64,000 bases of DNA. Origin: Tubulanus polymorphus (lineage: Eukaryota; Nemertea; Palaeonemertea; Tubulaniformes; Tubulanidae). The notes below the pieces were generated by a model that was not told the origin of the DNA, made no database searches, and was given only the letters and a program-made list of their open reading frames with translations. Position numbers and translations under genes: made by a program. The DNA lies in assembly GCF_964204645.1 (NCBI RefSeq), contig NW_027437431.1:1-64000 (forward strand), written 5' to 3'. This document shows, piece by piece, positions 9,753 to 64,000 of the stretch; within the stretch, counting starts at the first letter, position 1; each line of letters opens with the position of its first letter.

Positions 9753-9753
9753 T

Positions 9754-34145: not shown

Positions 34146-34238
34146 TAAAAATCAATATATGTGGTTTCCGCCTGCTTTTCGTTGATTGGTGAAATTGGCA
34201 ATGTTGAGAAAAAAAAATTTTTTGAGTGGCAGTCAACG

Positions 34239-37803: not shown

Positions 37804-37809
37804 CTGTTT

Positions 37810-38389: not shown

Positions 38390-38410
38390 CACAGCCCGTG
38401 GTGGTCTGTG
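38390..38410 (+). other. Small hairpin at the array start (candidate nick/junction site)
   Basis: CACAG and CTGTG at the ends of a 21-base stretch can pair. In internal copies CCAC/GTGG can pair instead over a 5-nt loop. It recurs at every unit boundary (41,796 and each 3,406 further). The array's left boundary falls on its first base. Confidence 0.5.
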
Positions 38411-38659
38411 ACAGTGGAGGTTAGTTAAAGTTCGAGGCGTGTGACTAGTCGGGGGGAATAACATAGGCGGCTACGCCGCGATAGTTAGTCGGCAAGGTCG
38501 GCTGCGCCTCCGGCGGTACAGATTACATCTGAGTGTATTAGTCTACCAACGGAAGCCCAAACCCTAAATAATATTAGTCGGAAAAATCTGAGTTAGAGGG
38601 TCGCAACCGGTTCAAACAATTTAACATCTCATACAGGTGACTCGTACTTTTAGTATCAA

Positions 38660-39742
38660 ATGCCATCGTTGAAACGGAGGCGAAACGGATTTACATTGCC
38701 CGGTTTACCACATTGCGGTCCATTCAACGATATATCCAGTTACAAAAGCGAAGGAATAGACGAAGTGTGCCGTATTCACGACAAAGAGTACGGAGAACTG
38801 CAAGAGAAATACGGTAAATGGGCTCCGTACTTCCAGTACAATTCAGCGGATCAGACATTTTTGGACAGTGCTTCGGGTGTGAACGGTGTAGGTGCGAGAC
38901 TAACGTCGAGTGTATTCAGAGCAAAACGGGCGTTATTTCCAACAATGGCGGAAGAACCGGCATTAAAAAGATCAAAGAGAACGGCGGAAACGGGGAGCGA
39001 AGAAGGGAACGCCCAACAAATGATGACTCACATGACGGAAAAGCCGTCACTACACTATAAGAGCGTGTTAATACATAGAGGTTACCTAACGTTTACGAAT
39101 TGGGATCCGGACCAGGCGTACGGAGCATTCGGAAGAAAAGCGAAGATTTACTGTTCGGGAATGAGAACGTTTAACTTCGGATTAAAAGAAAGAGAAGGAT
39201 GGAGAAGATTTCCAGCCAGCATGGATACCATAGGGATGTGGGATCAATTCAAAGTGACTTCGGGTAAAATAACGTTATACCCCATAGCGAGCGAAAGCGC
39301 GGTAAGCTCTGATTCGAACGCGTTCCAAGATCCGATAGTATGGTTAAAGACGGCAGCCGATTGGGACTTGAAAGTGAAAGACTCGGCCGCCAATACTCAC
39401 CAGGGATCGCCGTACGCCGATATAAATTTATTAACTCAAAAGCAAAGCTACAGGCAATACGAATTAGGTCGGGGATGCGTTAGCATGGGATTACCCATGT
39501 CGACCATAAGAACCGAAATACAAGACACGAGTGACCCGACAGACGTTACCAGATCGGTGAATATCGGGGATAACTCGGCGTGGTTAGACGGAGCGTACCG
39601 CGATCATTGGCAATCAGCCGCGCTCATTATGCAAATGTTAGTGTACAACGATTCGATACACGCGGATTTAAACACGCCCCATACAGAAATTATCGTTCCA
39701 GCGGAAGTGGAGTTTACGATGATTCATAGAAACAGAGTATAA
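38660..39742 (+). CDS. Capsid-type protein with N-terminal phospholipase A2 domain, copy 1
   Basis: A 360-aa protein. It has a basic start (KRRR, residues 5-8), then a parvovirus-VP1-like phospholipase A2 domain. The calcium-loop-like HCGPFN is at 18-23, the catalytic pair H40-D41 is followed by Y44, and YNSADQTF is at 60-67. In parvoviruses this enzyme acts on endosomal membranes during entry. The loop has Phe22 where the family usually has Gly. A second basic patch (KRSKR, 103-107) and a beta-rich remainder fit a single jelly-roll capsid. The first ATG is in a weak context (C at -3). The in-frame ATG at 38,945 (M96, AACAATGG) is strong and would give a 265-aa PLA2-less form, so a VP1/VP2 pair by leaky scanning is likely. 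The shell part is short compared with known parvoviruses. Confidence 0.85.
   Translation: MPSLKRRRNGFTLPGLPHCGPFNDISSYKSEGIDEVCRIHDKEYGELQEKYGKWAPYFQYNSADQTFLDSASGVNGVGARLTSSVFRAKRALFPTMAEEPALKRSKRTAETGSEEGNAQQMMTHMTEKPSLHYKSVLIHRGYLTFTNWDPDQAYGAFGRKAKIYCSGMRTFNFGLKEREGWRRFPASMDTIGMWDQFKVTSGKITLYPIASESAVSSDSNAFQDPIVWLKTAADWDLKVKDSAANTHQGSPYADINLLTQKQSYRQYELGRGCVSMGLPMSTIRTEIQDTSDPTDVTRSVNIGDNSAWLDGAYRDHWQSAALIMQMLVYNDSIHADLNTPHTEIIVPAEVEFTMIHRNRV
38945..39742 (+). CDS. Inferred short capsid form (VP2-like) from internal ATG, copy 1
   Basis: It starts at M96 of the long form, in the context AACAATGGCG with A at -3 and G at +4. The protein would be 265 aa, lack the PLA2 domain and begin with an acidic-basic tail (MAEEPALKRSKR). 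Parvoviruses make a major capsid protein without PLA2 in a comparable way. This is an inference from start context only. Confidence 0.5.
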   Translation: MAEEPALKRSKRTAETGSEEGNAQQMMTHMTEKPSLHYKSVLIHRGYLTFTNWDPDQAYGAFGRKAKIYCSGMRTFNFGLKEREGWRRFPASMDTIGMWDQFKVTSGKITLYPIASESAVSSDSNAFQDPIVWLKTAADWDLKVKDSAANTHQGSPYADINLLTQKQSYRQYELGRGCVSMGLPMSTIRTEIQDTSDPTDVTRSVNIGDNSAWLDGAYRDHWQSAALIMQMLVYNDSIHADLNTPHTEIIVPAEVEFTMIHRNRV

Positions 39743-39743
39743 T

Positions 39744-40052
39744 ATGATAATAACTTTCCTATTCTTGGCATCCGGTTTCCTACACGAGTACAAGTGGCAC
39801 GTATATACTAAACGTATCATGAGTAGAACGCAACGATTCATGAAAATAAGAGACGAAGTGGCGAACGAGTGGGTCATCAAACACGACGTCAACGAAAATC
39901 GGGTACTAAGGGAACAACACATTACAGAAGTAGCGAAAAGGATATTCTACTACCGGGAAAAACAATGGGAACTAAGTCGAGAAACTGGTCGTTCACAACC
40001 GACAATCGAGCAGAAGTCTGCCTCGAAAGTCAAATCGGAACGTCAACAGTAA
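39744..40052 (+). CDS. Small ORF of unknown function, copy 1
   Basis: A 102-aa frame starts one base after the VP stop and overlaps the first 88 bases of Rep in another frame. The first ~13 residues are hydrophobic (ITFLFLASGFL) and the rest is strongly charged and probably helical (RTQRFMKIRDEVANEW, AKRIFYYREKQWELSRE). I recognise no domain. A second ATG at residue 26 (MSRTQRF) may be the true start. It could be an accessory protein, or an exon joined to Rep by splicing, since small ssDNA viruses often splice here. It is conserved in every copy, but so is the whole unit. Confidence 0.5.
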   Translation: MIITFLFLASGFLHEYKWHVYTKRIMSRTQRFMKIRDEVANEWVIKHDVNENRVLREQHITEVAKRIFYYREKQWELSRETGRSQPTIEQKSASKVKSERQQ

Positions 40053-41368
40053 CCGTACACATAGGTCCGCAAGAAGATCCGGACGGTTACGCGCACGGAG
40101 TAATAATAACGTTAGCCAAAGGTACGCAACGACCGTTGAAACAGAGCGAAAACGCGATTAGACAACTGTTACACTCGCTAGGCATTAGATTAGTTAACGA
40201 CTACATCAAACCGACGGAAAAATTAGGCGCCTACATTCAATACATGTACAAAGAAGCCGACAAAATACCGGAAGAATTACGAGGTCACTTGGAGGTGAAA
40301 AACTCGAAAACGAACGACGACTTTTTCGGCCAAAAGATAAACGCGTTATACGCGGAATACCAACAAAGACCGGGACTAGCCGATTGGACGGCGAGAATAG
40401 TGAAGGAGTTCGGTTACAACGTACCCGAACTGAAAGTGAAAAGATCGTTTAAAAATTGGCCGGTAAGGGTAAAAGATATTACGAGAAACGCGGGTGACTT
40501 TGCGTTGAAAATGACGGACATAACAGAGCCGAAATTGACGCCGGAAATGGGAGTAGAAATTATAACGAAATGCCTGGATAACGTTCAATCGGCGATGTGG
40601 GATGGTAAACATATAAATAAACGTGACCTGCTGGTAATATTGGTGAACGCGGCGATCGAGGGAGGTACGAGTAAAATCAGAAACGCGCCTCATATAATAT
40701 TTTACGGAGATGCCGGGTCTGGTAAATCGATGTTGGCTAAATTATTGTTCCCGGATTCGATTACGAGCCAAATGCCGACGGATTCGGAAGGCGTAGGAGC
40801 GTGCGAGATGGGAGGAGGACAACGTATATTCAAAGTCGACGACGCCAGCGACGCTTTTTGGCACAACTCGGGGTTGTTGTCGATGATACTCGCGATGTAC
40901 CAGTCCACCTGGGAGGCAAAAGTACATTCTAGTAAACAAAGTAACCCGCCGTGTATGACGGTAATTACGACGAATTGTAAGAATCCGTTAGAGAAGTTCG
41001 CCTCTACAGTAGCTTTGGAAGCTGTGGAAAGGAGATTCTTGTCGGTGTATTTCAAAGGTAAAGCAGATTTGGGAAACGTAGTTTACGACATTACGCCGGG
41101 CGTATGCGAAGAAATATTAGAAATAATAGTTAACGAAATTAGACAAGGTAGATATCTGGACAACCAAGTCCACTTGGACGACTGGGAAACGGATGATGAC
41201 GTGGTGATACCGTTCGAAAAAGAAAGAAACTTCATCGAAGCGTACCACGTAGGTCACATGTCGGACGCGATGCATCAGAATATGGAGGAAAGGTTAAAAC
41301 GTAAACGTAAAGAAGAAGACGATACGAATGAAACTCTTAAGTTCGCTAAACGCGGGGAAATCCTGTAG
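39965..41368 (+). CDS. Rep: HUH-like endonuclease plus SF3 helicase, copy 1
   Basis: The ATG at 39,965 (AACAATGG, identical in context to the internal VP ATG) gives 467 aa. The frame is open further upstream but without an ATG. Residues 6-14, RNWSFTTDN, closely match motif I of CRESS-DNA virus Reps. Motif II is degenerate (candidate H44 in YAHGVI). YIQYMYK at 90-96 offers a YxxK nicking tyrosine (Y93). The SF3 helicase follows: Walker A GDAGSGKS at 248-255, Walker B FKVDD at 289-293, motif C TVITTN at 332-337. The C-terminus has a basic RLKRKRK patch. It should nick and unwind DNA for rolling-circle replication in the nucleus. At 467 aa it is longer than most CRESS Reps and shorter than most parvovirus NS1. 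Confidence 0.85.
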   Translation: MGTKSRNWSFTTDNRAEVCLESQIGTSTVTVHIGPQEDPDGYAHGVIITLAKGTQRPLKQSENAIRQLLHSLGIRLVNDYIKPTEKLGAYIQYMYKEADKIPEELRGHLEVKNSKTNDDFFGQKINALYAEYQQRPGLADWTARIVKEFGYNVPELKVKRSFKNWPVRVKDITRNAGDFALKMTDITEPKLTPEMGVEIITKCLDNVQSAMWDGKHINKRDLLVILVNAAIEGGTSKIRNAPHIIFYGDAGSGKSMLAKLLFPDSITSQMPTDSEGVGACEMGGGQRIFKVDDASDAFWHNSGLLSMILAMYQSTWEAKVHSSKQSNPPCMTVITTNCKNPLEKFASTVALEAVERRFLSVYFKGKADLGNVVYDITPGVCEEILEIIVNEIRQGRYLDNQVHLDDWETDDDVVIPFEKERNFIEAYHVGHMSDAMHQNMEERLKRKRKEEDDTNETLKFAKRGEIL

Positions 41369-41379
41369 TTGGCAATGTA

Positions 41380-41385
41380 AATAAA
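41380..41385 (+). terminator. Polyadenylation signal AATAAA after Rep
   Basis: It lies 11 bases after the Rep stop and recurs at the same place in every unit. It probably serves all plus-strand transcripts of the unit. Confidence 0.65.
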
Positions 41386-41434
41386 TCTATAAATAGAATT
41401 CTATAAATTTCTCAATTCGTTACTACCAGTGGAC

Positions 41435-41539
41435 CCGCAGACCCGCGGACCCACTGGCTGTTCGTTTTTCATGGTCTACCCCCCCTTATATATATAATAA
41501 GGAAAGAGAAGGAGGGTCCGCGGGTCCGCGGGTCTGCGG
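41435..41539. promoter_or_regulatory. Inverted repeat of GC-rich 8-mers around a TATA-like core (candidate Rep-binding/origin or promoter)
   Basis: CCGCAGACCCGCGGACCC at 41,435-41,452 pairs perfectly with GGGTCCGCGGGTCTGCGG at 41,522-41,539. The right side holds direct repeats GGGTCCGC, GGGTCCGC, GGGTCTGC (41,514-41,537), iteron-like as used by many Reps. Between the arms lies TATATATATA at 41,487-41,496. A smaller CCAGTGG/CCACTGG stem sits inside the left part. The roles are inference. Confidence 0.6.
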
Positions 41540-41621
41540 TATTCTCTAAACCGAGAATCGAAAAGTTAATGAAACTAGGTCGGAAAGATAACAAATTATT
41601 ATTCAATATATCCTAAAGCTT

Positions 41622-41675
41622 CTACGAGGTTGGTCACGCGCTCGCTACGCTCGCCAGCGTGACACAACCTCGTGG
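41622..41675. promoter_or_regulatory. 18-bp-stem hairpin with GCTC loop (candidate replication origin)
   Basis: Left arm CTACGAGGTTGGTCACGC (41,622-41,639) and right arm 41,657-41,675 pair over 18 positions with one bulged A and one G.T pair. The 17-nt loop contains GCTCGCTACGCTCGCC. GCTC-type tetramers are the Rep-binding element of adeno-associated virus, and stem-loops mark CRESS origins, so an origin role is plausible. Copies are at 45,028, 48,434, 51,840, 55,246, 58,652 and 62,058. Confidence 0.6.
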
Positions 41676-42065
41676 ACGCTCCAAAGATAATGAGTATGTG
41701 CTTGATAATGAGTGAATTAATTGGGAACCCTATAGCGGGTAAAAGGTAAGAAGTAGAAATTATAGGGTTAGGGGTTATCATTATACTCGGATGCCCACAG
41801 CCCGTGGTGGTCTGTGACAGTGGAGGTTAGTTAAAGTTCGAGGCGTGTGACTAGTCGGGGGGAATAACATAGGCGGCTACGCCGCGATAGTTAGTCGGCA
41901 AGGTCGGCTGCGCCTCCGGCGGTACAGATTACATCTGAGTGTATTAGTCTACCAACGGAAGCCCAAACCCTAAATAATATTAGTCGGAAAAATCTGAGTT
42001 AGAGGGTCGCAACCGGTTCAAACAATTTAACATCTCATACAGGTGACTCGTACTTTTAGTATCAA

Positions 42066-43148
42066 ATGCCATCGTTGAAACGGAGGCGAAACGGATTTAC
42101 ATTGCCCGGTTTACCACATTGCGGTCCATTCAACGATATATCCAGTTACAAAAGCGAAGGAATAGACGAAGTGTGCCGTATTCACGACAAAGAGTACGGA
42201 GAACTGCAAGAGAAATACGGTAAATGGGCTCCGTACTTCCAGTACAATTCAGCGGATCAGACATTTTTGGACAGTGCTTCGGGTGTGAACGGTGTAGGTG
42301 CGAGACTAACGTCGAGTGTATTCAGAGCAAAACGGGCGTTATTTCCAACAATGGCGGAAGAACCGGCATTAAAAAGATCAAAGAGAACGGCGGAAACGGG
42401 GAGCGAAGAAGGGAACGCCCAACAAATGATGACTCACATGACGGAAAAGCCGTCACTACACTATAAGAGCGTGTTAATACATAGAGGTTACCTAACGTTT
42501 ACGAATTGGGATCCGGACCAGGCGTACGGAGCATTCGGAAGAAAAGCGAAGATTTACTGTTCGGGAATGAGAACGTTTAACTTCGGATTAAAAGAAAGAG
42601 AAGGATGGAGAAGATTTCCAGCCAGCATGGATACCATAGGGATGTGGGATCAATTCAAAGTGACTTCGGGTAAAATAACGTTATACCCCATAGCGAGCGA
42701 AAGCGCGGTAAGCTCTGATTCGAACGCGTTCCAAGATCCGATAGTATGGTTAAAGACGGCAGCCGATTGGGACTTGAAAGTGAAAGACTCGGCCGCCAAT
42801 ACTCACCAGGGATCGCCGTACGCCGATATAAATTTATTAACTCAAAAGCAAAGCTACAGGCAATACGAATTAGGTCGGGGATGCGTTAGCATGGGATTAC
42901 CCATGTCGACCATAAGAACCGAAATACAAGACACGAGTGACCCGACAGACGTTACCAGATCGGTGAATATCGGGGATAACTCGGCGTGGTTAGACGGAGC
43001 GTACCGCGATCATTGGCAATCAGCCGCGCTCATTATGCAAATGTTAGTGTACAACGATTCGATACACGCGGATTTAAACACGCCCCATACAGAAATTATC
43101 GTTCCAGCGGAAGTGGAGTTTACGATGATTCATAGAAACAGAGTATAA
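42066..43148 (+). CDS. PLA2-domain capsid-type protein, copy 2
   Basis: The translation is the same as copy 1 across all 360 residues; the internal strong ATG is at 42,351. Confidence 0.85.
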   Translation: MPSLKRRRNGFTLPGLPHCGPFNDISSYKSEGIDEVCRIHDKEYGELQEKYGKWAPYFQYNSADQTFLDSASGVNGVGARLTSSVFRAKRALFPTMAEEPALKRSKRTAETGSEEGNAQQMMTHMTEKPSLHYKSVLIHRGYLTFTNWDPDQAYGAFGRKAKIYCSGMRTFNFGLKEREGWRRFPASMDTIGMWDQFKVTSGKITLYPIASESAVSSDSNAFQDPIVWLKTAADWDLKVKDSAANTHQGSPYADINLLTQKQSYRQYELGRGCVSMGLPMSTIRTEIQDTSDPTDVTRSVNIGDNSAWLDGAYRDHWQSAALIMQMLVYNDSIHADLNTPHTEIIVPAEVEFTMIHRNRV

Positions 43149-43149
43149 T

Positions 43150-43458
43150 ATGATAATAACTTTCCTATTCTTGGCATCCGGTTTCCTACACGAGTACAAG
43201 TGGCACGTATATACTAAACGTATCATGAGTAGAACGCAACGATTCATGAAAATAAGAGACGAAGTGGCGAACGAGTGGGTCATCAAACACGACGTCAACG
43301 AAAATCGGGTACTAAGGGAACAACACATTACAGAAGTAGCGAAAAGGATATTCTACTACCGGGAAAAACAATGGGAACTAAGTCGAGAAACTGGTCGTTC
43401 ACAACCGACAATCGAGCAGAAGTCTGCCTCGAAAGTCAAATCGGAACGTCAACAGTAA
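43150..43458 (+). CDS. Small ORF of unknown function, copy 2
   Basis: Same 102-aa translation as copy 1, same one-base gap after VP. Confidence 0.5.
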   Translation: MIITFLFLASGFLHEYKWHVYTKRIMSRTQRFMKIRDEVANEWVIKHDVNENRVLREQHITEVAKRIFYYREKQWELSRETGRSQPTIEQKSASKVKSERQQ

Positions 43459-44774
43459 CCGTACACATAGGTCCGCAAGAAGATCCGGACGGTTACGCGC
43501 ACGGAGTAATAATAACGTTAGCCAAAGGTACGCAACGACCGTTGAAACAGAGCGAAAACGCGATTAGACAACTGTTACACTCGCTAGGCATTAGATTAGT
43601 TAACGACTACATCAAACCGACGGAAAAATTAGGCGCCTACATTCAATACATGTACAAAGAAGCCGACAAAATACCGGAAGAATTACGAGGTCACTTGGAG
43701 GTGAAAAACTCGAAAACGAACGACGACTTTTTCGGCCAAAAGATAAACGCGTTATACGCGGAATACCAACAAAGACCGGGACTAGCCGATTGGACGGCGA
43801 GAATAGTGAAGGAGTTCGGTTACAACGTACCCGAACTGAAAGTGAAAAGATCGTTTAAAAATTGGCCGGTAAGGGTAAAAGATATTACGAGAAACGCGGG
43901 TGACTTTGCGTTGAAAATGACGGACATAACAGAGCCGAAATTGACGCCGGAAATGGGAGTAGAAATTATAACGAAATGCCTGGATAACGTTCAATCGGCG
44001 ATGTGGGATGGTAAACATATAAATAAACGTGACCTGCTGGTAATATTGGTGAACGCGGCGATCGAGGGAGGTACGAGTAAAATCAGAAACGCGCCTCATA
44101 TAATATTTTACGGAGATGCCGGGTCTGGTAAATCGATGTTGGCTAAATTATTGTTCCCGGATTCGATTACGAGCCAAATGCCGACGGATTCGGAAGGCGT
44201 AGGAGCGTGCGAGATGGGAGGAGGACAACGTATATTCAAAGTCGACGACGCCAGCGACGCTTTTTGGCACAACTCGGGGTTGTTGTCGATGATACTCGCG
44301 ATGTACCAGTCCACCTGGGAGGCAAAAGTACATTCTAGTAAACAAAGTAACCCGCCGTGTATGACGGTAATTACGACGAATTGTAAGAATCCGTTAGAGA
44401 AGTTCGCCTCTACAGTAGCTTTGGAAGCTGTGGAAAGGAGATTCTTGTCGGTGTATTTCAAAGGTAAAGCAGATTTGGGAAACGTAGTTTACGACATTAC
44501 GCCGGGCGTATGCGAAGAAATATTAGAAATAATAGTTAACGAAATTAGACAAGGTAGATATCTGGACAACCAAGTCCACTTGGACGACTGGGAAACGGAT
44601 GATGACGTGGTGATACCGTTCGAAAAAGAAAGAAACTTCATCGAAGCGTACCACGTAGGTCACATGTCGGACGCGATGCATCAGAATATGGAGGAAAGGT
44701 TAAAACGTAAACGTAAAGAAGAAGACGATACGAATGAAACTCTTAAGTTCGCTAAACGCGGGGAAATCCTGTAG
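43371..44774 (+). CDS. Rep, copy 2
   Basis: Same 467-aa translation as copy 1; intact. Confidence 0.85.
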   Translation: MGTKSRNWSFTTDNRAEVCLESQIGTSTVTVHIGPQEDPDGYAHGVIITLAKGTQRPLKQSENAIRQLLHSLGIRLVNDYIKPTEKLGAYIQYMYKEADKIPEELRGHLEVKNSKTNDDFFGQKINALYAEYQQRPGLADWTARIVKEFGYNVPELKVKRSFKNWPVRVKDITRNAGDFALKMTDITEPKLTPEMGVEIITKCLDNVQSAMWDGKHINKRDLLVILVNAAIEGGTSKIRNAPHIIFYGDAGSGKSMLAKLLFPDSITSQMPTDSEGVGACEMGGGQRIFKVDDASDAFWHNSGLLSMILAMYQSTWEAKVHSSKQSNPPCMTVITTNCKNPLEKFASTVALEAVERRFLSVYFKGKADLGNVVYDITPGVCEEILEIIVNEIRQGRYLDNQVHLDDWETDDDVVIPFEKERNFIEAYHVGHMSDAMHQNMEERLKRKRKEEDDTNETLKFAKRGEIL

Positions 44775-45471
44775 TTGGCAATGTAAATAAATCTATAAAT
44801 AGAATTCTATAAATTTCTCAATTCGTTACTACCAGTGGACCCGCAGACCCGCGGACCCACTGGCTGTTCGTTTTTCATGGTCTACCCCCCCTTATATATA
44901 TAATAAGGAAAGAGAAGGAGGGTCCGCGGGTCCGCGGGTCTGCGGTATTCTCTAAACCGAGAATCGAAAAGTTAATGAAACTAGGTCGGAAAGATAACAA
45001 ATTATTATTCAATATATCCTAAAGCTTCTACGAGGTTGGTCACGCGCTCGCTACGCTCGCCAGCGTGACACAACCTCGTGGACGCTCCAAAGATAATGAG
45101 TATGTGCTTGATAATGAGTGAATTAATTGGGAACCCTATAGCGGGTAAAAGGTAAGAAGTAGAAATTATAGGGTTAGGGGTTATCATTATACTCGGATGC
45201 CCACAGCCCGTGGTGGTCTGTGACAGTGGAGGTTAGTTAAAGTTCGAGGCGTGTGACTAGTCGGGGGGAATAACATAGGCGGCTACGCCGCGATAGTTAG
45301 TCGGCAAGGTCGGCTGCGCCTCCGGCGGTACAGATTACATCTGAGTGTATTAGTCTACCAACGGAAGCCCAAACCCTAAATAATATTAGTCGGAAAAATC
45401 TGAGTTAGAGGGTCGCAACCGGTTCAAACAATTTAACATCTCATACAGGTGACTCGTACTTTTAGTATCAA

Positions 45472-46554
45472 ATGCCATCGTTGAAACGGAGGCGAAACGG
45501 ATTTACATTGCCCGGTTTACCACATTGCGGTCCATTCAACGATATATCCAGTTACAAAAGCGAAGGAATAGACGAAGTGTGCCGTATTCACGACAAAGAG
45601 TACGGAGAACTGCAAGAGAAATACGGTAAATGGGCTCCGTACTTCCAGTACAATTCAGCGGATCAGACATTTTTGGACAGTGCTTCGGGTGTGAACGGTG
45701 TAGGTGCGAGACTAACGTCGAGTGTATTCAGAGCAAAACGGGCGTTATTTCCAACAATGGCGGAAGAACCGGCATTAAAAAGATCAAAGAGAACGGCGGA
45801 AACGGGGAGCGAAGAAGGGAACGCCCAACAAATGATGACTCACATGACGGAAAAGCCGTCACTACACTATAAGAGCGTGTTAATACATAGAGGTTACCTA
45901 ACGTTTACGAATTGGGATCCGGACCAGGCGTACGGAGCATTCGGAAGAAAAGCGAAGATTTACTGTTCGGGAATGAGAACGTTTAACTTCGGATTAAAAG
46001 AAAGAGAAGGATGGAGAAGATTTCCAGCCAGCATGGATACCATAGGGATGTGGGATCAATTCAAAGTGACTTCGGGTAAAATAACGTTATACCCCATAGC
46101 GAGCGAAAGCGCGGTAAGCTCTGATTCGAACGCGTTCCAAGATCCGATAGTATGGTTAAAGACGGCAGCCGATTGGGACTTGAAAGTGAAAGACTCGGCC
46201 GCCAATACTCACCAGGGATCGCCGTACGCCGATATAAATTTATTAACTCAAAAGCAAAGCTACAGGCAATACGAATTAGGTCGGGGATGCGTTAGCATGG
46301 GATTACCCATGTCGACCATAAGAACCGAAATACAAGACACGAGTGACCCGACAGACGTTACCAGATCGGTGAATATCGGGGATAACTCGGCGTGGTTAGA
46401 CGGAGCGTACCGCGATCATTGGCAATCAGCCGCGCTCATTATGCAAATGTTAGTGTACAACGATTCGATACACGCGGATTTAAACACGCCCCATACAGAA
46501 ATTATCGTTCCAGCGGAAGTGGAGTTTACGATGATTCATAGAAACAGAGTATAA
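45472..46554 (+). CDS. PLA2-domain capsid-type protein, copy 3
   Basis: Identical in translation to copy 1; internal ATG at 45,757. Confidence 0.85.
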   Translation: MPSLKRRRNGFTLPGLPHCGPFNDISSYKSEGIDEVCRIHDKEYGELQEKYGKWAPYFQYNSADQTFLDSASGVNGVGARLTSSVFRAKRALFPTMAEEPALKRSKRTAETGSEEGNAQQMMTHMTEKPSLHYKSVLIHRGYLTFTNWDPDQAYGAFGRKAKIYCSGMRTFNFGLKEREGWRRFPASMDTIGMWDQFKVTSGKITLYPIASESAVSSDSNAFQDPIVWLKTAADWDLKVKDSAANTHQGSPYADINLLTQKQSYRQYELGRGCVSMGLPMSTIRTEIQDTSDPTDVTRSVNIGDNSAWLDGAYRDHWQSAALIMQMLVYNDSIHADLNTPHTEIIVPAEVEFTMIHRNRV

Positions 46555-46555
46555 T

Positions 46556-46864
46556 ATGATAATAACTTTCCTATTCTTGGCATCCGGTTTCCTACACGAG
46601 TACAAGTGGCACGTATATACTAAACGTATCATGAGTAGAACGCAACGATTCATGAAAATAAGAGACGAAGTGGCGAACGAGTGGGTCATCAAACACGACG
46701 TCAACGAAAATCGGGTACTAAGGGAACAACACATTACAGAAGTAGCGAAAAGGATATTCTACTACCGGGAAAAACAATGGGAACTAAGTCGAGAAACTGG
46801 TCGTTCACAACCGACAATCGAGCAGAAGTCTGCCTCGAAAGTCAAATCGGAACGTCAACAGTAA
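46556..46864 (+). CDS. Small ORF of unknown function, copy 3
   Basis: Identical in translation to copy 1. Confidence 0.5.
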   Translation: MIITFLFLASGFLHEYKWHVYTKRIMSRTQRFMKIRDEVANEWVIKHDVNENRVLREQHITEVAKRIFYYREKQWELSRETGRSQPTIEQKSASKVKSERQQ

Positions 46865-49960: not shown

Positions 49961-49961
49961 T

Positions 49962-53366: not shown

Positions 53367-53367
53367 T

Positions 53368-54992: not shown

Positions 54993-55537
54993 TTGGCAAT
55001 GTAAATAAATCTATAAATAGAATTCTATAAATTTCTCAATTCGTTACTACCAGTGGACCCGCAGACCCGCGGACCCACTGGCTGTTCGTTTTTCATGGTC
55101 TACCCCCCCTTATATATATAATAAGGAAAGAGAAGGAGGGTCCGCGGGTCCGCGGGTCTGCGGTATTCTCTAAACCGAGAATCGAAAAGTTAATGAAACT
55201 AGGTCGGAAAGATAACAAATTATTATTCAATATATCCTAAAGCTTCTACGAGGTTGGTCACGCGCTCGCTACGCTCGCCAGCGTGACACAACCTCGTGGA
55301 CGCTCCAAAGATAATGAGTATGTGCTTGATAATGAGTGAATTAATTGGGAACCCTATAGCGGGTAAAAGGTAAGAAGTAGAAATTATAGGGTTAGGGGTT
55401 ATCATTATACTCGGATGCCCACAGCCCGTGGTGGTCTGTGACAGTGGAGGTTAGTTAAAGTTCGAGGCGTGTGACTAGTCGGGGGGAATAACATAGGCGG
55501 CTACGCCGCGATAGTTAGTCGGCAAGGTCGGCTGCGC

Positions 55538-55538
55538 A
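55538..55538 (+). other. Single-base variant between array copies
   Basis: Copy 6 reads GCTGCGCATCCGG where the other copies read GCTGCGCCTCCGG. It is noncoding, 152 bases ahead of VP. Confidence 0.9.
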
Positions 55539-55689
55539 TCCGGCGGTACAGATTACATCTGAGTGTATTAGTCTACCAACGGAAGCCCAAACCCTAAATA
55601 ATATTAGTCGGAAAAATCTGAGTTAGAGGGTCGCAACCGGTTCAAACAATTTAACATCTCATACAGGTGACTCGTACTTTTAGTATCAA

Positions 55690-56772
55690 ATGCCATCGTT
55701 GAAACGGAGGCGAAACGGATTTACATTGCCCGGTTTACCACATTGCGGTCCATTCAACGATATATCCAGTTACAAAAGCGAAGGAATAGACGAAGTGTGC
55801 CGTATTCACGACAAAGAGTACGGAGAACTGCAAGAGAAATACGGTAAATGGGCTCCGTACTTCCAGTACAATTCAGCGGATCAGACATTTTTGGACAGTG
55901 CTTCGGGTGTGAACGGTGTAGGTGCGAGACTAACGTCGAGTGTATTCAGAGCAAAACGGGCGTTATTTCCAACAATGGCGGAAGAACCGGCATTAAAAAG
56001 ATCAAAGAGAACGGCGGAAACGGGGAGCGAAGAAGGGAACGCCCAACAAATGATGACTCACATGACGGAAAAGCCGTCACTACACTATAAGAGCGTGTTA
56101 ATACATAGAGGTTACCTAACGTTTACGAATTGGGATCCGGACCAGGCGTACGGAGCATTCGGAAGAAAAGCGAAGATTTACTGTTCGGGAATGAGAACGT
56201 TTAACTTCGGATTAAAAGAAAGAGAAGGATGGAGAAGATTTCCAGCCAGCATGGATACCATAGGGATGTGGGATCAATTCAAAGTGACTTCGGGTAAAAT
56301 AACGTTATACCCCATAGCGAGCGAAAGCGCGGTAAGCTCTGATTCGAACGCGTTCCAAGATCCGATAGTATGGTTAAAGACGGCAGCCGATTGGGACTTG
56401 AAAGTGAAAGACTCGGCCGCCAATACTCACCAGGGATCGCCGTACGCCGATATAAATTTATTAACTCAAAAGCAAAGCTACAGGCAATACGAATTAGGTC
56501 GGGGATGCGTTAGCATGGGATTACCCATGTCGACCATAAGAACCGAAATACAAGACACGAGTGACCCGACAGACGTTACCAGATCGGTGAATATCGGGGA
56601 TAACTCGGCGTGGTTAGACGGAGCGTACCGCGATCATTGGCAATCAGCCGCGCTCATTATGCAAATGTTAGTGTACAACGATTCGATACACGCGGATTTA
56701 AACACGCCCCATACAGAAATTATCGTTCCAGCGGAAGTGGAGTTTACGATGATTCATAGAAACAGAGTATAA
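55690..56772 (+). CDS. PLA2-domain capsid-type protein, copy 6
   Basis: Identical in translation to copy 1; the unit carries the 55,538 variant in its leader. Internal ATG at 55,975. Confidence 0.85.
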   Translation: MPSLKRRRNGFTLPGLPHCGPFNDISSYKSEGIDEVCRIHDKEYGELQEKYGKWAPYFQYNSADQTFLDSASGVNGVGARLTSSVFRAKRALFPTMAEEPALKRSKRTAETGSEEGNAQQMMTHMTEKPSLHYKSVLIHRGYLTFTNWDPDQAYGAFGRKAKIYCSGMRTFNFGLKEREGWRRFPASMDTIGMWDQFKVTSGKITLYPIASESAVSSDSNAFQDPIVWLKTAADWDLKVKDSAANTHQGSPYADINLLTQKQSYRQYELGRGCVSMGLPMSTIRTEIQDTSDPTDVTRSVNIGDNSAWLDGAYRDHWQSAALIMQMLVYNDSIHADLNTPHTEIIVPAEVEFTMIHRNRV

Positions 56773-56773
56773 T

Positions 56774-57082
56774 ATGATAATAACTTTCCTATTCTTGGCA
56801 TCCGGTTTCCTACACGAGTACAAGTGGCACGTATATACTAAACGTATCATGAGTAGAACGCAACGATTCATGAAAATAAGAGACGAAGTGGCGAACGAGT
56901 GGGTCATCAAACACGACGTCAACGAAAATCGGGTACTAAGGGAACAACACATTACAGAAGTAGCGAAAAGGATATTCTACTACCGGGAAAAACAATGGGA
57001 ACTAAGTCGAGAAACTGGTCGTTCACAACCGACAATCGAGCAGAAGTCTGCCTCGAAAGTCAAATCGGAACGTCAACAGTAA
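56774..57082 (+). CDS. Small ORF of unknown function, copy 6
   Basis: Identical in translation to copy 1. Confidence 0.5.
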   Translation: MIITFLFLASGFLHEYKWHVYTKRIMSRTQRFMKIRDEVANEWVIKHDVNENRVLREQHITEVAKRIFYYREKQWELSRETGRSQPTIEQKSASKVKSERQQ

Positions 57083-58398
57083 CCGTACACATAGGTCCGC
57101 AAGAAGATCCGGACGGTTACGCGCACGGAGTAATAATAACGTTAGCCAAAGGTACGCAACGACCGTTGAAACAGAGCGAAAACGCGATTAGACAACTGTT
57201 ACACTCGCTAGGCATTAGATTAGTTAACGACTACATCAAACCGACGGAAAAATTAGGCGCCTACATTCAATACATGTACAAAGAAGCCGACAAAATACCG
57301 GAAGAATTACGAGGTCACTTGGAGGTGAAAAACTCGAAAACGAACGACGACTTTTTCGGCCAAAAGATAAACGCGTTATACGCGGAATACCAACAAAGAC
57401 CGGGACTAGCCGATTGGACGGCGAGAATAGTGAAGGAGTTCGGTTACAACGTACCCGAACTGAAAGTGAAAAGATCGTTTAAAAATTGGCCGGTAAGGGT
57501 AAAAGATATTACGAGAAACGCGGGTGACTTTGCGTTGAAAATGACGGACATAACAGAGCCGAAATTGACGCCGGAAATGGGAGTAGAAATTATAACGAAA
57601 TGCCTGGATAACGTTCAATCGGCGATGTGGGATGGTAAACATATAAATAAACGTGACCTGCTGGTAATATTGGTGAACGCGGCGATCGAGGGAGGTACGA
57701 GTAAAATCAGAAACGCGCCTCATATAATATTTTACGGAGATGCCGGGTCTGGTAAATCGATGTTGGCTAAATTATTGTTCCCGGATTCGATTACGAGCCA
57801 AATGCCGACGGATTCGGAAGGCGTAGGAGCGTGCGAGATGGGAGGAGGACAACGTATATTCAAAGTCGACGACGCCAGCGACGCTTTTTGGCACAACTCG
57901 GGGTTGTTGTCGATGATACTCGCGATGTACCAGTCCACCTGGGAGGCAAAAGTACATTCTAGTAAACAAAGTAACCCGCCGTGTATGACGGTAATTACGA
58001 CGAATTGTAAGAATCCGTTAGAGAAGTTCGCCTCTACAGTAGCTTTGGAAGCTGTGGAAAGGAGATTCTTGTCGGTGTATTTCAAAGGTAAAGCAGATTT
58101 GGGAAACGTAGTTTACGACATTACGCCGGGCGTATGCGAAGAAATATTAGAAATAATAGTTAACGAAATTAGACAAGGTAGATATCTGGACAACCAAGTC
58201 CACTTGGACGACTGGGAAACGGATGATGACGTGGTGATACCGTTCGAAAAAGAAAGAAACTTCATCGAAGCGTACCACGTAGGTCACATGTCGGACGCGA
58301 TGCATCAGAATATGGAGGAAAGGTTAAAACGTAAACGTAAAGAAGAAGACGATACGAATGAAACTCTTAAGTTCGCTAAACGCGGGGAAATCCTGTAG
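56995..58398 (+). CDS. Rep, copy 6
   Basis: Identical in translation to copy 1; intact. Confidence 0.85.
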   Translation: MGTKSRNWSFTTDNRAEVCLESQIGTSTVTVHIGPQEDPDGYAHGVIITLAKGTQRPLKQSENAIRQLLHSLGIRLVNDYIKPTEKLGAYIQYMYKEADKIPEELRGHLEVKNSKTNDDFFGQKINALYAEYQQRPGLADWTARIVKEFGYNVPELKVKRSFKNWPVRVKDITRNAGDFALKMTDITEPKLTPEMGVEIITKCLDNVQSAMWDGKHINKRDLLVILVNAAIEGGTSKIRNAPHIIFYGDAGSGKSMLAKLLFPDSITSQMPTDSEGVGACEMGGGQRIFKVDDASDAFWHNSGLLSMILAMYQSTWEAKVHSSKQSNPPCMTVITTNCKNPLEKFASTVALEAVERRFLSVYFKGKADLGNVVYDITPGVCEEILEIIVNEIRQGRYLDNQVHLDDWETDDDVVIPFEKERNFIEAYHVGHMSDAMHQNMEERLKRKRKEEDDTNETLKFAKRGEIL

Positions 58399-59095
58399 TT
58401 GGCAATGTAAATAAATCTATAAATAGAATTCTATAAATTTCTCAATTCGTTACTACCAGTGGACCCGCAGACCCGCGGACCCACTGGCTGTTCGTTTTTC
58501 ATGGTCTACCCCCCCTTATATATATAATAAGGAAAGAGAAGGAGGGTCCGCGGGTCCGCGGGTCTGCGGTATTCTCTAAACCGAGAATCGAAAAGTTAAT
58601 GAAACTAGGTCGGAAAGATAACAAATTATTATTCAATATATCCTAAAGCTTCTACGAGGTTGGTCACGCGCTCGCTACGCTCGCCAGCGTGACACAACCT
58701 CGTGGACGCTCCAAAGATAATGAGTATGTGCTTGATAATGAGTGAATTAATTGGGAACCCTATAGCGGGTAAAAGGTAAGAAGTAGAAATTATAGGGTTA
58801 GGGGTTATCATTATACTCGGATGCCCACAGCCCGTGGTGGTCTGTGACAGTGGAGGTTAGTTAAAGTTCGAGGCGTGTGACTAGTCGGGGGGAATAACAT
58901 AGGCGGCTACGCCGCGATAGTTAGTCGGCAAGGTCGGCTGCGCCTCCGGCGGTACAGATTACATCTGAGTGTATTAGTCTACCAACGGAAGCCCAAACCC
59001 TAAATAATATTAGTCGGAAAAATCTGAGTTAGAGGGTCGCAACCGGTTCAAACAATTTAACATCTCATACAGGTGACTCGTACTTTTAGTATCAA

Positions 59096-60178
59096 ATGCC
59101 ATCGTTGAAACGGAGGCGAAACGGATTTACATTGCCCGGTTTACCACATTGCGGTCCATTCAACGATATATCCAGTTACAAAAGCGAAGGAATAGACGAA
59201 GTGTGCCGTATTCACGACAAAGAGTACGGAGAACTGCAAGAGAAATACGGTAAATGGGCTCCGTACTTCCAGTACAATTCAGCGGATCAGACATTTTTGG
59301 ACAGTGCTTCGGGTGTGAACGGTGTAGGTGCGAGACTAACGTCGAGTGTATTCAGAGCAAAACGGGCGTTATTTCCAACAATGGCGGAAGAACCGGCATT
59401 AAAAAGATCAAAGAGAACGGCGGAAACGGGGAGCGAAGAAGGGAACGCCCAACAAATGATGACTCACATGACGGAAAAGCCGTCACTACACTATAAGAGC
59501 GTGTTAATACATAGAGGTTACCTAACGTTTACGAATTGGGATCCGGACCAGGCGTACGGAGCATTCGGAAGAAAAGCGAAGATTTACTGTTCGGGAATGA
59601 GAACGTTTAACTTCGGATTAAAAGAAAGAGAAGGATGGAGAAGATTTCCAGCCAGCATGGATACCATAGGGATGTGGGATCAATTCAAAGTGACTTCGGG
59701 TAAAATAACGTTATACCCCATAGCGAGCGAAAGCGCGGTAAGCTCTGATTCGAACGCGTTCCAAGATCCGATAGTATGGTTAAAGACGGCAGCCGATTGG
59801 GACTTGAAAGTGAAAGACTCGGCCGCCAATACTCACCAGGGATCGCCGTACGCCGATATAAATTTATTAACTCAAAAGCAAAGCTACAGGCAATACGAAT
59901 TAGGTCGGGGATGCGTTAGCATGGGATTACCCATGTCGACCATAAGAACCGAAATACAAGACACGAGTGACCCGACAGACGTTACCAGATCGGTGAATAT
60001 CGGGGATAACTCGGCGTGGTTAGACGGAGCGTACCGCGATCATTGGCAATCAGCCGCGCTCATTATGCAAATGTTAGTGTACAACGATTCGATACACGCG
60101 GATTTAAACACGCCCCATACAGAAATTATCGTTCCAGCGGAAGTGGAGTTTACGATGATTCATAGAAACAGAGTATAA
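59096..60178 (+). CDS. PLA2-domain capsid-type protein, copy 7
   Basis: Identical in translation to copy 1; internal ATG at 59,381. Confidence 0.85.
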   Translation: MPSLKRRRNGFTLPGLPHCGPFNDISSYKSEGIDEVCRIHDKEYGELQEKYGKWAPYFQYNSADQTFLDSASGVNGVGARLTSSVFRAKRALFPTMAEEPALKRSKRTAETGSEEGNAQQMMTHMTEKPSLHYKSVLIHRGYLTFTNWDPDQAYGAFGRKAKIYCSGMRTFNFGLKEREGWRRFPASMDTIGMWDQFKVTSGKITLYPIASESAVSSDSNAFQDPIVWLKTAADWDLKVKDSAANTHQGSPYADINLLTQKQSYRQYELGRGCVSMGLPMSTIRTEIQDTSDPTDVTRSVNIGDNSAWLDGAYRDHWQSAALIMQMLVYNDSIHADLNTPHTEIIVPAEVEFTMIHRNRV

Positions 60179-60179
60179 T

Positions 60180-60488
60180 ATGATAATAACTTTCCTATTC
60201 TTGGCATCCGGTTTCCTACACGAGTACAAGTGGCACGTATATACTAAACGTATCATGAGTAGAACGCAACGATTCATGAAAATAAGAGACGAAGTGGCGA
60301 ACGAGTGGGTCATCAAACACGACGTCAACGAAAATCGGGTACTAAGGGAACAACACATTACAGAAGTAGCGAAAAGGATATTCTACTACCGGGAAAAACA
60401 ATGGGAACTAAGTCGAGAAACTGGTCGTTCACAACCGACAATCGAGCAGAAGTCTGCCTCGAAAGTCAAATCGGAACGTCAACAGTAA
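60180..60488 (+). CDS. Small ORF of unknown function, copy 7
   Basis: Identical in translation to copy 1. Confidence 0.5.
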   Translation: MIITFLFLASGFLHEYKWHVYTKRIMSRTQRFMKIRDEVANEWVIKHDVNENRVLREQHITEVAKRIFYYREKQWELSRETGRSQPTIEQKSASKVKSERQQ

Positions 60489-61804
60489 CCGTACACATAG
60501 GTCCGCAAGAAGATCCGGACGGTTACGCGCACGGAGTAATAATAACGTTAGCCAAAGGTACGCAACGACCGTTGAAACAGAGCGAAAACGCGATTAGACA
60601 ACTGTTACACTCGCTAGGCATTAGATTAGTTAACGACTACATCAAACCGACGGAAAAATTAGGCGCCTACATTCAATACATGTACAAAGAAGCCGACAAA
60701 ATACCGGAAGAATTACGAGGTCACTTGGAGGTGAAAAACTCGAAAACGAACGACGACTTTTTCGGCCAAAAGATAAACGCGTTATACGCGGAATACCAAC
60801 AAAGACCGGGACTAGCCGATTGGACGGCGAGAATAGTGAAGGAGTTCGGTTACAACGTACCCGAACTGAAAGTGAAAAGATCGTTTAAAAATTGGCCGGT
60901 AAGGGTAAAAGATATTACGAGAAACGCGGGTGACTTTGCGTTGAAAATGACGGACATAACAGAGCCGAAATTGACGCCGGAAATGGGAGTAGAAATTATA
61001 ACGAAATGCCTGGATAACGTTCAATCGGCGATGTGGGATGGTAAACATATAAATAAACGTGACCTGCTGGTAATATTGGTGAACGCGGCGATCGAGGGAG
61101 GTACGAGTAAAATCAGAAACGCGCCTCATATAATATTTTACGGAGATGCCGGGTCTGGTAAATCGATGTTGGCTAAATTATTGTTCCCGGATTCGATTAC
61201 GAGCCAAATGCCGACGGATTCGGAAGGCGTAGGAGCGTGCGAGATGGGAGGAGGACAACGTATATTCAAAGTCGACGACGCCAGCGACGCTTTTTGGCAC
61301 AACTCGGGGTTGTTGTCGATGATACTCGCGATGTACCAGTCCACCTGGGAGGCAAAAGTACATTCTAGTAAACAAAGTAACCCGCCGTGTATGACGGTAA
61401 TTACGACGAATTGTAAGAATCCGTTAGAGAAGTTCGCCTCTACAGTAGCTTTGGAAGCTGTGGAAAGGAGATTCTTGTCGGTGTATTTCAAAGGTAAAGC
61501 AGATTTGGGAAACGTAGTTTACGACATTACGCCGGGCGTATGCGAAGAAATATTAGAAATAATAGTTAACGAAATTAGACAAGGTAGATATCTGGACAAC
61601 CAAGTCCACTTGGACGACTGGGAAACGGATGATGACGTGGTGATACCGTTCGAAAAAGAAAGAAACTTCATCGAAGCGTACCACGTAGGTCACATGTCGG
61701 ACGCGATGCATCAGAATATGGAGGAAAGGTTAAAACGTAAACGTAAAGAAGAAGACGATACGAATGAAACTCTTAAGTTCGCTAAACGCGGGGAAATCCT
61801 GTAG
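60401..61804 (+). CDS. Rep, copy 7
   Basis: Identical in translation to copy 1; the last complete Rep in the window. Confidence 0.85.
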   Translation: MGTKSRNWSFTTDNRAEVCLESQIGTSTVTVHIGPQEDPDGYAHGVIITLAKGTQRPLKQSENAIRQLLHSLGIRLVNDYIKPTEKLGAYIQYMYKEADKIPEELRGHLEVKNSKTNDDFFGQKINALYAEYQQRPGLADWTARIVKEFGYNVPELKVKRSFKNWPVRVKDITRNAGDFALKMTDITEPKLTPEMGVEIITKCLDNVQSAMWDGKHINKRDLLVILVNAAIEGGTSKIRNAPHIIFYGDAGSGKSMLAKLLFPDSITSQMPTDSEGVGACEMGGGQRIFKVDDASDAFWHNSGLLSMILAMYQSTWEAKVHSSKQSNPPCMTVITTNCKNPLEKFASTVALEAVERRFLSVYFKGKADLGNVVYDITPGVCEEILEIIVNEIRQGRYLDNQVHLDDWETDDDVVIPFEKERNFIEAYHVGHMSDAMHQNMEERLKRKRKEEDDTNETLKFAKRGEIL

Positions 61805-62501
61805 TTGGCAATGTAAATAAATCTATAAATAGAATTCTATAAATTTCTCAATTCGTTACTACCAGTGGACCCGCAGACCCGCGGACCCACTGGCTGTTCG
61901 TTTTTCATGGTCTACCCCCCCTTATATATATAATAAGGAAAGAGAAGGAGGGTCCGCGGGTCCGCGGGTCTGCGGTATTCTCTAAACCGAGAATCGAAAA
62001 GTTAATGAAACTAGGTCGGAAAGATAACAAATTATTATTCAATATATCCTAAAGCTTCTACGAGGTTGGTCACGCGCTCGCTACGCTCGCCAGCGTGACA
62101 CAACCTCGTGGACGCTCCAAAGATAATGAGTATGTGCTTGATAATGAGTGAATTAATTGGGAACCCTATAGCGGGTAAAAGGTAAGAAGTAGAAATTATA
62201 GGGTTAGGGGTTATCATTATACTCGGATGCCCACAGCCCGTGGTGGTCTGTGACAGTGGAGGTTAGTTAAAGTTCGAGGCGTGTGACTAGTCGGGGGGAA
62301 TAACATAGGCGGCTACGCCGCGATAGTTAGTCGGCAAGGTCGGCTGCGCCTCCGGCGGTACAGATTACATCTGAGTGTATTAGTCTACCAACGGAAGCCC
62401 AAACCCTAAATAATATTAGTCGGAAAAATCTGAGTTAGAGGGTCGCAACCGGTTCAAACAATTTAACATCTCATACAGGTGACTCGTACTTTTAGTATCA
62501 A

Positions 62502-63584
62502 ATGCCATCGTTGAAACGGAGGCGAAACGGATTTACATTGCCCGGTTTACCACATTGCGGTCCATTCAACGATATATCCAGTTACAAAAGCGAAGGAATA
62601 GACGAAGTGTGCCGTATTCACGACAAAGAGTACGGAGAACTGCAAGAGAAATACGGTAAATGGGCTCCGTACTTCCAGTACAATTCAGCGGATCAGACAT
62701 TTTTGGACAGTGCTTCGGGTGTGAACGGTGTAGGTGCGAGACTAACGTCGAGTGTATTCAGAGCAAAACGGGCGTTATTTCCAACAATGGCGGAAGAACC
62801 GGCATTAAAAAGATCAAAGAGAACGGCGGAAACGGGGAGCGAAGAAGGGAACGCCCAACAAATGATGACTCACATGACGGAAAAGCCGTCACTACACTAT
62901 AAGAGCGTGTTAATACATAGAGGTTACCTAACGTTTACGAATTGGGATCCGGACCAGGCGTACGGAGCATTCGGAAGAAAAGCGAAGATTTACTGTTCGG
63001 GAATGAGAACGTTTAACTTCGGATTAAAAGAAAGAGAAGGATGGAGAAGATTTCCAGCCAGCATGGATACCATAGGGATGTGGGATCAATTCAAAGTGAC
63101 TTCGGGTAAAATAACGTTATACCCCATAGCGAGCGAAAGCGCGGTAAGCTCTGATTCGAACGCGTTCCAAGATCCGATAGTATGGTTAAAGACGGCAGCC
63201 GATTGGGACTTGAAAGTGAAAGACTCGGCCGCCAATACTCACCAGGGATCGCCGTACGCCGATATAAATTTATTAACTCAAAAGCAAAGCTACAGGCAAT
63301 ACGAATTAGGTCGGGGATGCGTTAGCATGGGATTACCCATGTCGACCATAAGAACCGAAATACAAGACACGAGTGACCCGACAGACGTTACCAGATCGGT
63401 GAATATCGGGGATAACTCGGCGTGGTTAGACGGAGCGTACCGCGATCATTGGCAATCAGCCGCGCTCATTATGCAAATGTTAGTGTACAACGATTCGATA
63501 CACGCGGATTTAAACACGCCCCATACAGAAATTATCGTTCCAGCGGAAGTGGAGTTTACGATGATTCATAGAAACAGAGTATAA
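62502..63584 (+). CDS. PLA2-domain capsid-type protein, copy 8
   Basis: Identical in translation to copy 1; internal ATG at 62,787. Confidence 0.85.
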   Translation: MPSLKRRRNGFTLPGLPHCGPFNDISSYKSEGIDEVCRIHDKEYGELQEKYGKWAPYFQYNSADQTFLDSASGVNGVGARLTSSVFRAKRALFPTMAEEPALKRSKRTAETGSEEGNAQQMMTHMTEKPSLHYKSVLIHRGYLTFTNWDPDQAYGAFGRKAKIYCSGMRTFNFGLKEREGWRRFPASMDTIGMWDQFKVTSGKITLYPIASESAVSSDSNAFQDPIVWLKTAADWDLKVKDSAANTHQGSPYADINLLTQKQSYRQYELGRGCVSMGLPMSTIRTEIQDTSDPTDVTRSVNIGDNSAWLDGAYRDHWQSAALIMQMLVYNDSIHADLNTPHTEIIVPAEVEFTMIHRNRV

Positions 63585-63585
63585 T

Positions 63586-63894
63586 ATGATAATAACTTTC
63601 CTATTCTTGGCATCCGGTTTCCTACACGAGTACAAGTGGCACGTATATACTAAACGTATCATGAGTAGAACGCAACGATTCATGAAAATAAGAGACGAAG
63701 TGGCGAACGAGTGGGTCATCAAACACGACGTCAACGAAAATCGGGTACTAAGGGAACAACACATTACAGAAGTAGCGAAAAGGATATTCTACTACCGGGA
63801 AAAACAATGGGAACTAAGTCGAGAAACTGGTCGTTCACAACCGACAATCGAGCAGAAGTCTGCCTCGAAAGTCAAATCGGAACGTCAACAGTAA
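63586..63894 (+). CDS. Small ORF of unknown function, copy 8
   Basis: Identical in translation to copy 1. Confidence 0.5.
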   Translation: MIITFLFLASGFLHEYKWHVYTKRIMSRTQRFMKIRDEVANEWVIKHDVNENRVLREQHITEVAKRIFYYREKQWELSRETGRSQPTIEQKSASKVKSERQQ

Positions 63895-64000
63895 CCGTAC
63901 ACATAGGTCCGCAAGAAGATCCGGACGGTTACGCGCACGGAGTAATAATAACGTTAGCCAAAGGTACGCAACGACCGTTGAAACAGAGCGAAAACGCGAT
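63807..64000 (+). CDS. Rep, copy 8, cut by the window end
   Basis: The first 64 codons, including motif I, are present. The array therefore continues past the right edge by an unknown length. Confidence 0.8.
   Translation, partial: MGTKSRNWSFTTDNRAEVCLESQIGTSTVTVHIGPQEDPDGYAHGVIITLAKGTQRPLKQSENA

What the first reader, a model, noticed from the sequence alone, without database searches (positions are those of the whole stretch)
38390..64000. Near-perfect tandem array of a complete small virus-like genome
Exactly 3,406-bp units repeat head to tail at least 7.5 times with one base difference seen, and all frames are open in every copy. Endogenous ssDNA viral sequences in animals are usually single, truncated and full of stops. 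An intact concatemer of this length suggests insertion of a rolling-circle product very recently, an actively homogenised array, or a host locus that produces the element (as a satellite-like provirus).
Basis: partly seen in the sequence, partly recalled or inferred. Interest (0 to 1): 0.97.

Follow-up and report, generated by a model that had tools for sequence, protein, structure and literature searches.

The report
Virus array inside duplicated host DNA
In what is probably an animal genome assembly, dozens of near-identical copies of a small unknown virus-like genome lie head to tail beside repeated copies of one 45,000-base piece of host DNA, which points to a virus-host DNA concatemer rather than a simple single insertion.

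Summary
Units of 3,406 bp run head to tail from 38,390 to 174,430 of contig C14 (39.94 units) and again from 219,879 to the contig end (6.34). Between them lies a 45,448-bp host block whose last 38.4 kb repeat the window's left flank at 99.96%. A block with the same two ends lies on contig C2 without array; the ends are exactly the two array junctions. So the virus array joins the end of a host segment to its beginning: a virus-host concatemer (tandem duplication or hybrid circle). The host copies are distinguishable, so this is not one circle unrolled by the assembler. Substitution density is alike in array and host copies (about 1.1e-4 per bp), so open frames reflect youth; 1 of 47 VP copies has a stop. 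The unit is an orphan: a 360-aa protein with a parvovirus-type phospholipase A2 domain, a small conserved ORF, and a Rep with HUH-like and superfamily-3-like motifs (motifs read by eye). Diverged relatives (36-63%) lie elsewhere in the genome. No reads were available; chromosomal position, heritability and a circular virus are inferred.

The parts
38390..64000 (+). Part of array 1 inside the window: 7.52 head-to-tail units of 3,406 bp (array 1 continues to contig position 174,430)
   Evidence: self-comparison at lag 3,406; phase map of the contig
1..38389 (+). Host segment copy A (last 38.4 kb of a 45,448-bp block; holds transposable-element sequences)
   Evidence: 99.96% copy before array 2; matching stretches on C2; Pfam matches
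38389..38390 (.). Junction J1, end of host segment to array; the same junction again at contig 219,878/219,879; 2-bp microhomology with the C2 sequence
38660..39742 (+). VP-like gene (first unit), 360 aa, parvovirus-type phospholipase A2 domain at residues 10-89; recurs every 3,406 bp
   Evidence: Pfam PF08398 E 2.4e-11; parvovirus-type VP1 chains in PDB, best E 1.3e-12
39744..40052 (+). ORF2 (first unit), 102 aa; alignment with the C11 relative suggests the true start may be the internal ATG at 39,819
   Evidence: 49% identity over 89 aligned positions at the same place in the C11 relative
39965..41368 (+). Rep-like gene (first unit), 467 aa from the ATG; HUH-like motifs, then Walker A, Walker B and motif C in superfamily-3 order (motif names recalled)
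   Evidence: translation; 63% and 60% identical pieces on C11; weak Pfam matches only
41369..42065 (.). Intergenic region between Rep and the next VP; AATAAA at 41,380, TATA-like boxes between 41,388 and 41,496
41425..41539 (.). Hairpin 1: three GACCC-type repeats at 8-bp spacing facing three inverted ones, TATA-rich loop; origin or promoter candidate
   Evidence: the repeat finder; motif positions; DNA fold z -5.9
41617..41680 (.). Hairpin 2; the host junctions fall on either side of it (unit positions equivalent to 41,595 and 41,796)
   Evidence: DNA fold z -5.8; junction phases

Best explanation
A circular small-DNA virus of an undescribed lineage (VP with phospholipase A2, ORF2, HUH/SF3-like Rep) produced a long head-to-tail concatemer, most simply by rolling-circle replication. 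The concatemer joined broken host DNA at the C2 locus by end-joining, at unit sites on either side of hairpin 2. The repair or replication event duplicated a 45.4-kb host segment with virus DNA between the copies, giving host segment - array - host segment - array. It has since been inherited as one haplotype of the C2 locus and has gathered mutations at the host rate. Shown from the assembly: array, junctions, three distinguishable host copies, similar mutation densities, diverged relatives elsewhere. Inferred: circular virus, rolling-circle origin, end-joining, position in the chromosome at C2, germline inheritance.
For: Both array junctions lie at the two ends of one host segment that on C2 shows no array at either end. 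Host copies A, B and C2 differ by private substitutions, and copy B has a conversion tract matching a nearby inverted repeat. C14 starts in sequence identical to C2 (10,000 of 10,000 bases; first difference found at 13,701; 10,001-13,526 not compared), as expected for an assembly path that forks off C2. Units have one orientation. Array 1.08e-4 variable positions per bp against 1.17e-4 private point changes per bp of host copy. Diverged relatives with the same gene order, e.g. C11, show repeated capture of this lineage.
Against: No reads, depth or Hi-C. No contig was seen to join an array to the C2 flanks outside the segment, so placement is not shown. Two bp of microhomology is what chance gives in 1 of 16 junctions, so it says little. 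10 of 17 variable array positions and 4 of 5 private changes of copy A are transversions (counted), so some differences may be consensus errors and the densities are upper bounds. C14 is not placed, and an assembler can miscount units in such an array. Head-to-tail order could also arise by recombination.
Confidence: 0.6

Rival explanations
1. Hybrid extrachromosomal circle: the 45.4-kb host segment plus virus units exists as a large circle (or a family of circles) in the cells, as described for papillomavirus in tumours, and C14 is its linear read-out.
For: The array closes the host segment end to start, which is what a circle looks like; the DNA and protein searches list array copies on C14 only, none beside the C2 flanks.
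Against: Copies A and B differ at 14 positions including a conversion tract, so at least two distinct host copies sit next to arrays; somatic circles should hardly differ by 1e-4 per base, if those differences are real.
Confidence: 0.16
2. Assembly artefact: reads of an abundant free virus concatemer were misjoined to host contigs.
For: Unplaced contig that ends inside an array; array probably longer than single reads; base composition of the unit differs from the host (VP and Rep GC 0.465 and 0.452, first 36 kb of flank 0.369).
Against: A misjoin would not be expected to pick both exact ends of one host segment, and the same junction recurs beside distinguishable host copies. Array and host copies have similar substitution density.
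Confidence: 0.14
3. A host-maintained array (satellite-like or domesticated provirus) kept for function and homogenised.
For: Near-identity of the units, three variants shared by neighbouring units, intact genes in 46 of 47 VP and 46 of 46 Rep copies.
Against: Near-identity is explained by youth; coding changes are near random proportions; the C2 copy of the segment lacks the array at both ends.
Confidence: 0.08

Closest known systems
Endogenous geminiviral sequences EGV1 in yams (PMC5014472; passages read)
   Same: Tandem repeats of a circular ssDNA virus in a host genome, inferred there to possibly exceed 23 kb
   Different: Plant; partial gene set in the repeats; here whole units, 136 kb in array 1, next to repeated copies of a host segment
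Papillomavirus-host concatemers, 'heterocateny' (PMC13386876; passages read)
   Same: Virus concatemers joined to repeated host segments, inside or outside the chromosome
   Different: Somatic, in tumours, papillomavirus; here an unrelated virus in a genome assembly, perhaps inherited
Parvoviridae
   Same: Phospholipase A2 domain at the N-terminus of the VP-like protein
   Different: Unit of 3.4 kb is below the 3.9-6.3 kb given in PMC11357303 (passages read); VP lies before Rep; no Parvo_NS1 match; head-to-tail order only
Parvo-like hybrid viruses, NIH-CQV/PHV (PMC13141889, first of two parts of the text; PMC9896142, passages and one section; that they pair a parvovirus-like capsid with a circovirus-like Rep in about 3.6 kb is recalled)
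   Same: Possibly the same pairing of genes at similar size
   Different: No sequence comparison was made; PMC13141889 treats most of that group as reagent contamination, while this unit is joined to host DNA and has diverged relatives in the same assembly
Circular 'dark matter' genomes with a PLA2 protein cluster (PMC7000223; passages and one section read)
   Same: Circular DNA elements whose protein clusters include Rep, capsid and PLA2
   Different: No sequence comparison was made

Membership tests
Parvoviridae | VP1 with phospholipase A2 domain | tested here: met
   PF08398 E 2.4e-11; PDB VP1/capsid chains, best E 1.3e-12
Parvoviridae | NS1 recognisable as Parvo_NS1 | tested here: not met
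   No Parvo_NS1 match in Pfam scans of Rep, its two halves and two C11 pieces (filters drop most matches above E 0.1); no NS1 chain listed in PDB scans. Absence at this sensitivity only
Parvoviridae | Linear genome of 3.9-6.3 kb with terminal hairpins | tested here: inconclusive
   Unit 3,406 bp, below the range. Two strong hairpins in the intergenic region, one of which could be a fused terminus; linear form not testable
Cressdnaviricota (CRESS-DNA viruses) | Rep with HUH motifs I-III and SF3 helicase | tested here: inconclusive
   Motif-like stretches conserved with the C11 relative; motif names recalled; motif II has a single histidine; no profile match above a curated cut-off
Cressdnaviricota (CRESS-DNA viruses) | Conserved nonanucleotide in a stem-loop | tested here: not met
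   In the 697-bp intergenic region, both strands: no exact NANTATTAC; 4 one-mismatch sites against 2.8 in shuffles, none closed by a perfect stem longer than 3 bp
Cressdnaviricota (CRESS-DNA viruses) | Circular genome | not testable with these tools
   Head-to-tail order fits, but does not show, a circle
Endogenous viral element | Contiguous with host DNA in the assembly | tested here: met
   J1 and its repeat continuous with host segment also on C2; reads not seen
Virus-host concatemer (heterocateny-like) | Virus array alternating with copies of one host segment | tested here: met
   Segment A - array 1 - segment B - array 2 on C14, in the assembly only

The most novel reading that the evidence does not exclude
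A heritable virus-host concatemer in an animal germline: a circular ssDNA virus lineage combining a parvovirus-type PLA2 capsid protein with an HUH/SF3 Rep, preserved as at least 45 whole units interleaved with duplicated host DNA, with older captures of the same lineage in the same genome.
Probability: 0.45. Interest if true: 0.92.

Novelty: new variant of a known kind. Interest (0 to 1): 0.82.

Why it matters
Virus-host concatemers of this form are described from tumours; an inherited one would show that the same process can enter a germline and duplicate tens of kilobases of host DNA. The unit also stands for a virus lineage without recognisable relatives in the collections searched, whose past in this host is partly recorded by diverged copies. 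Because a segment copy without array, two distinguishable host copies beside arrays and many units are all present, the order and age of events can be tested directly with reads and other individuals.

Tried and rejected
Protein relatives: Rep and VP against the 5.8-billion protein set gave nothing at E 1e-3, and Rep from its ATG nothing at E 10. IMG/VR scans with Rep, VP, two alignments and two motif patterns gave no confirmed relative; the alignment scans used only two short patterns each. PHROGs and NCBIfam gave only weak matches or none. In PDB scans of the Rep and of the VP C-terminal part, the best was the P-loop region of a DNA translocase coupling protein (E 0.0042 with a two-sequence profile; others). 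Single-sequence structure models were unusable (mean pLDDT 33.7 and 32.8), so no fold search was made and a jelly-roll in the VP is unproven. Searches of the whole genome with PF08398 and PF01057 never ran, so ordinary parvovirus fragments were not looked for.

Rejected: one circular molecule unrolled by the assembler, because copies A and B differ. Telomeric insertion was considered because of a TTAGGG in the intergenic region; host TTAGGG repeats exist (1,634 pattern matches), but the junctions printed hold no telomere repeats. Host identity: TTAGG repeats were found at two interior-looking places only, which argues against most arthropods; COX1 was not found; a Wnt search never ran, so 'animal' is an inference from transposon types. 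A likeness of hairpin 2 to AAV-type termini is by eye and recall only.
Full report
What was checked. The window is bases 1-64,000 of contig C14 (241,462 bp) in an unnamed assembly of 267.8 Mb in 77 contigs. From 38,390 on, the sequence repeats at exactly 3,406 bp; inside the window one base differs. On the whole contig, array 1 runs 38,390-174,430 (39.94 units) and array 2 runs 219,879-241,462 (6.34 units, to the contig end), 45 whole units in all. There are 17 variable positions, 21 substitution occurrences, and one indel near 75,546. Three anchor words occur 46 times each on the + strand and never on the other. A DNA search of the genome scored 40 of 48 candidates, and all 40 lie on C14; protein searches list only diverged relatives elsewhere.

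The surroundings. Between the arrays lies a 45,448-bp block. Its last 38,388 bp are the window's left flank again, with 13 mismatches and one gap. A search with left-flank DNA listed three full-length matches: two on C14 and one on C2, a 31.9-Mb contig. On C2 the homology stops at J1, apart from 2 bp shared by chance or microhomology. A search with the beginning of the block listed C14 once and C2 once, and on C2 the homology stops at J2, again with 2 bp shared. The two C2 ends lie 45,449 bp apart, and the stretches fetched between them are collinear; the rest of that interval was not read. No virus protein matches the C2 stretches at the two ends. In the unit, J1 and J2 lie 200 bp apart, on either side of hairpin 2.

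Are the host copies real? About 17.6 kb of C2 were compared with copy A. All 14 A/B differences could be placed. Copy A has five private bases. Copy B has four private substitutions plus a run of five differences at 15,117-15,231, where B matches the inverted repeat at 13,761-14,345: a gene-conversion tract. One further site sets C2 apart from A and B. In the first 3,500 bp of the block, which copy A lacks, C2 and B differ at three bases. A single circle read more than once would give identical copies. C14 begins in sequence identical to C2 (10,000 of 10,000 bases), and the first difference found is at 13,701; 10,001-13,526 was not compared. This fits a path that forks off C2, and so a haplotype of the C2 locus, but does not prove it.

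Age. Variable positions in the array amount to 1.08e-4 per bp (17 positions counted once each, indel left out); private point changes in the host copies to 1.17e-4 per bp (9 changes, conversion tract left out). Array and duplication therefore look about equally old, and rapid homogenisation is not needed. Variants shared by adjacent units (phases 283, 660 and 2,674) show some turnover. If the differences are real they are too many for somatic events, which favours inheritance; but 10 of 17 array variants and 4 of 5 private changes of copy A are transversions, so some may be consensus errors.

The unit. VP-like protein, 360 aa: PLA2 domain at 10-89 (PF08398 E 2.4e-11); the nearest chains in the PDB are VP1/capsid proteins of parvovirus type. 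The rest of the protein has no convincing match. ORF2, 102 aa: only weak family matches, but 49% identity over 89 positions in the C11 relative. Rep-like protein, 467 aa from an ATG supported by the C11 alignment (a stop lies before it in that frame): NWSFTT, a single-histidine motif and YxxK in order, then Walker A GDAGSGKS (residues 248-255), VDDA and ITTN; all the same in C11 apart from one substitution within Walker A. HUH and superfamily 3 are motif readings from recall; Pfam gives only weak matches below the curated cut-offs, among them AAA_10, DUF5906 and RNA_helicase. The intergenic 697 bp hold two strong hairpins (z -5.9 and -5.8), three short repeats facing three, and no CRESS nonanucleotide stem-loop.

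Relatives in the same genome. Rep matches outside C14, 5 of 51: C11 (59%, two pieces), C8 (63%, partial), C2 at 9.51 Mb (53% and 50%). VP matches outside C14, 6 of 53: C11 (59% and 49%), C5 (53% and 36%), C8 (52%), C10 (50% over 56 residues, E 1.3e-4, weak). On C11 the VP, ORF2 and Rep lie in the same order, VP and Rep each as two pieces. Between the window and C11, pN is 0.27-0.29 and pS 0.70-0.76, near saturation, which indicates purifying selection in the virus lineage before capture.

Open frames. In the array, 11 variable coding positions are 5 synonymous, 5 non-synonymous and 1 stop; random changes would give about 21%, 73-74% and 5-6%. The synonymous excess has P = 0.06. Open frames show youth, not function.

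Interpretation. The order segment A - array 1 - segment B - array 2 has the form of the virus-host concatemers called heterocateny in papillomavirus tumours (PMC13386876, passages read). Tandem arrays of an ssDNA virus in a host genome are reported from yams, possibly over 23 kb (PMC5014472, passages read). Nine searches of the held library listed no germline case of this form in an animal; only the listed titles and starts of abstracts were seen, the lists were capped, and most subscription papers are not held. Other papers opened and not relied on: PMC12297876 (outline and abstract), PMC5013282 (passages), PMC10458741 (passages).

Limits. No reads, no depth, no named host. The chromosomal position, the heritability and the circular nature of the virus are inferred.

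Noticed in passing
window 36108-37330: Transposon-like stretch of about 1.25 kb near the array, with many copies at 84-86% on many contigs (395 candidates at first look, 40 scored)
   Followed up: no
window 5039-8442: Adjacent ORFs with GDSL-lipase plus zinc-knuckle and endonuclease plus reverse-transcriptase matches: a LINE-type retrotransposon
   Followed up: no
window 13761-15529: Inverted repeat (arms about 97% alike); host copy B shows a gene-conversion tract between the arms
   Followed up: yes
window 31205-32795: Tandem repeats with units of 154 and 121 bp in the host segment
   Followed up: no
G000 C2:9510863-9512172: Two overlapping Rep fragments in one orientation about 1.1 kb apart, with stops: perhaps the remains of an older tandem of the same virus lineage
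   Followed up: no
G000 C11:6982699-6985240: Older relative with VP, ORF2 and Rep in the same order
   Followed up: partly
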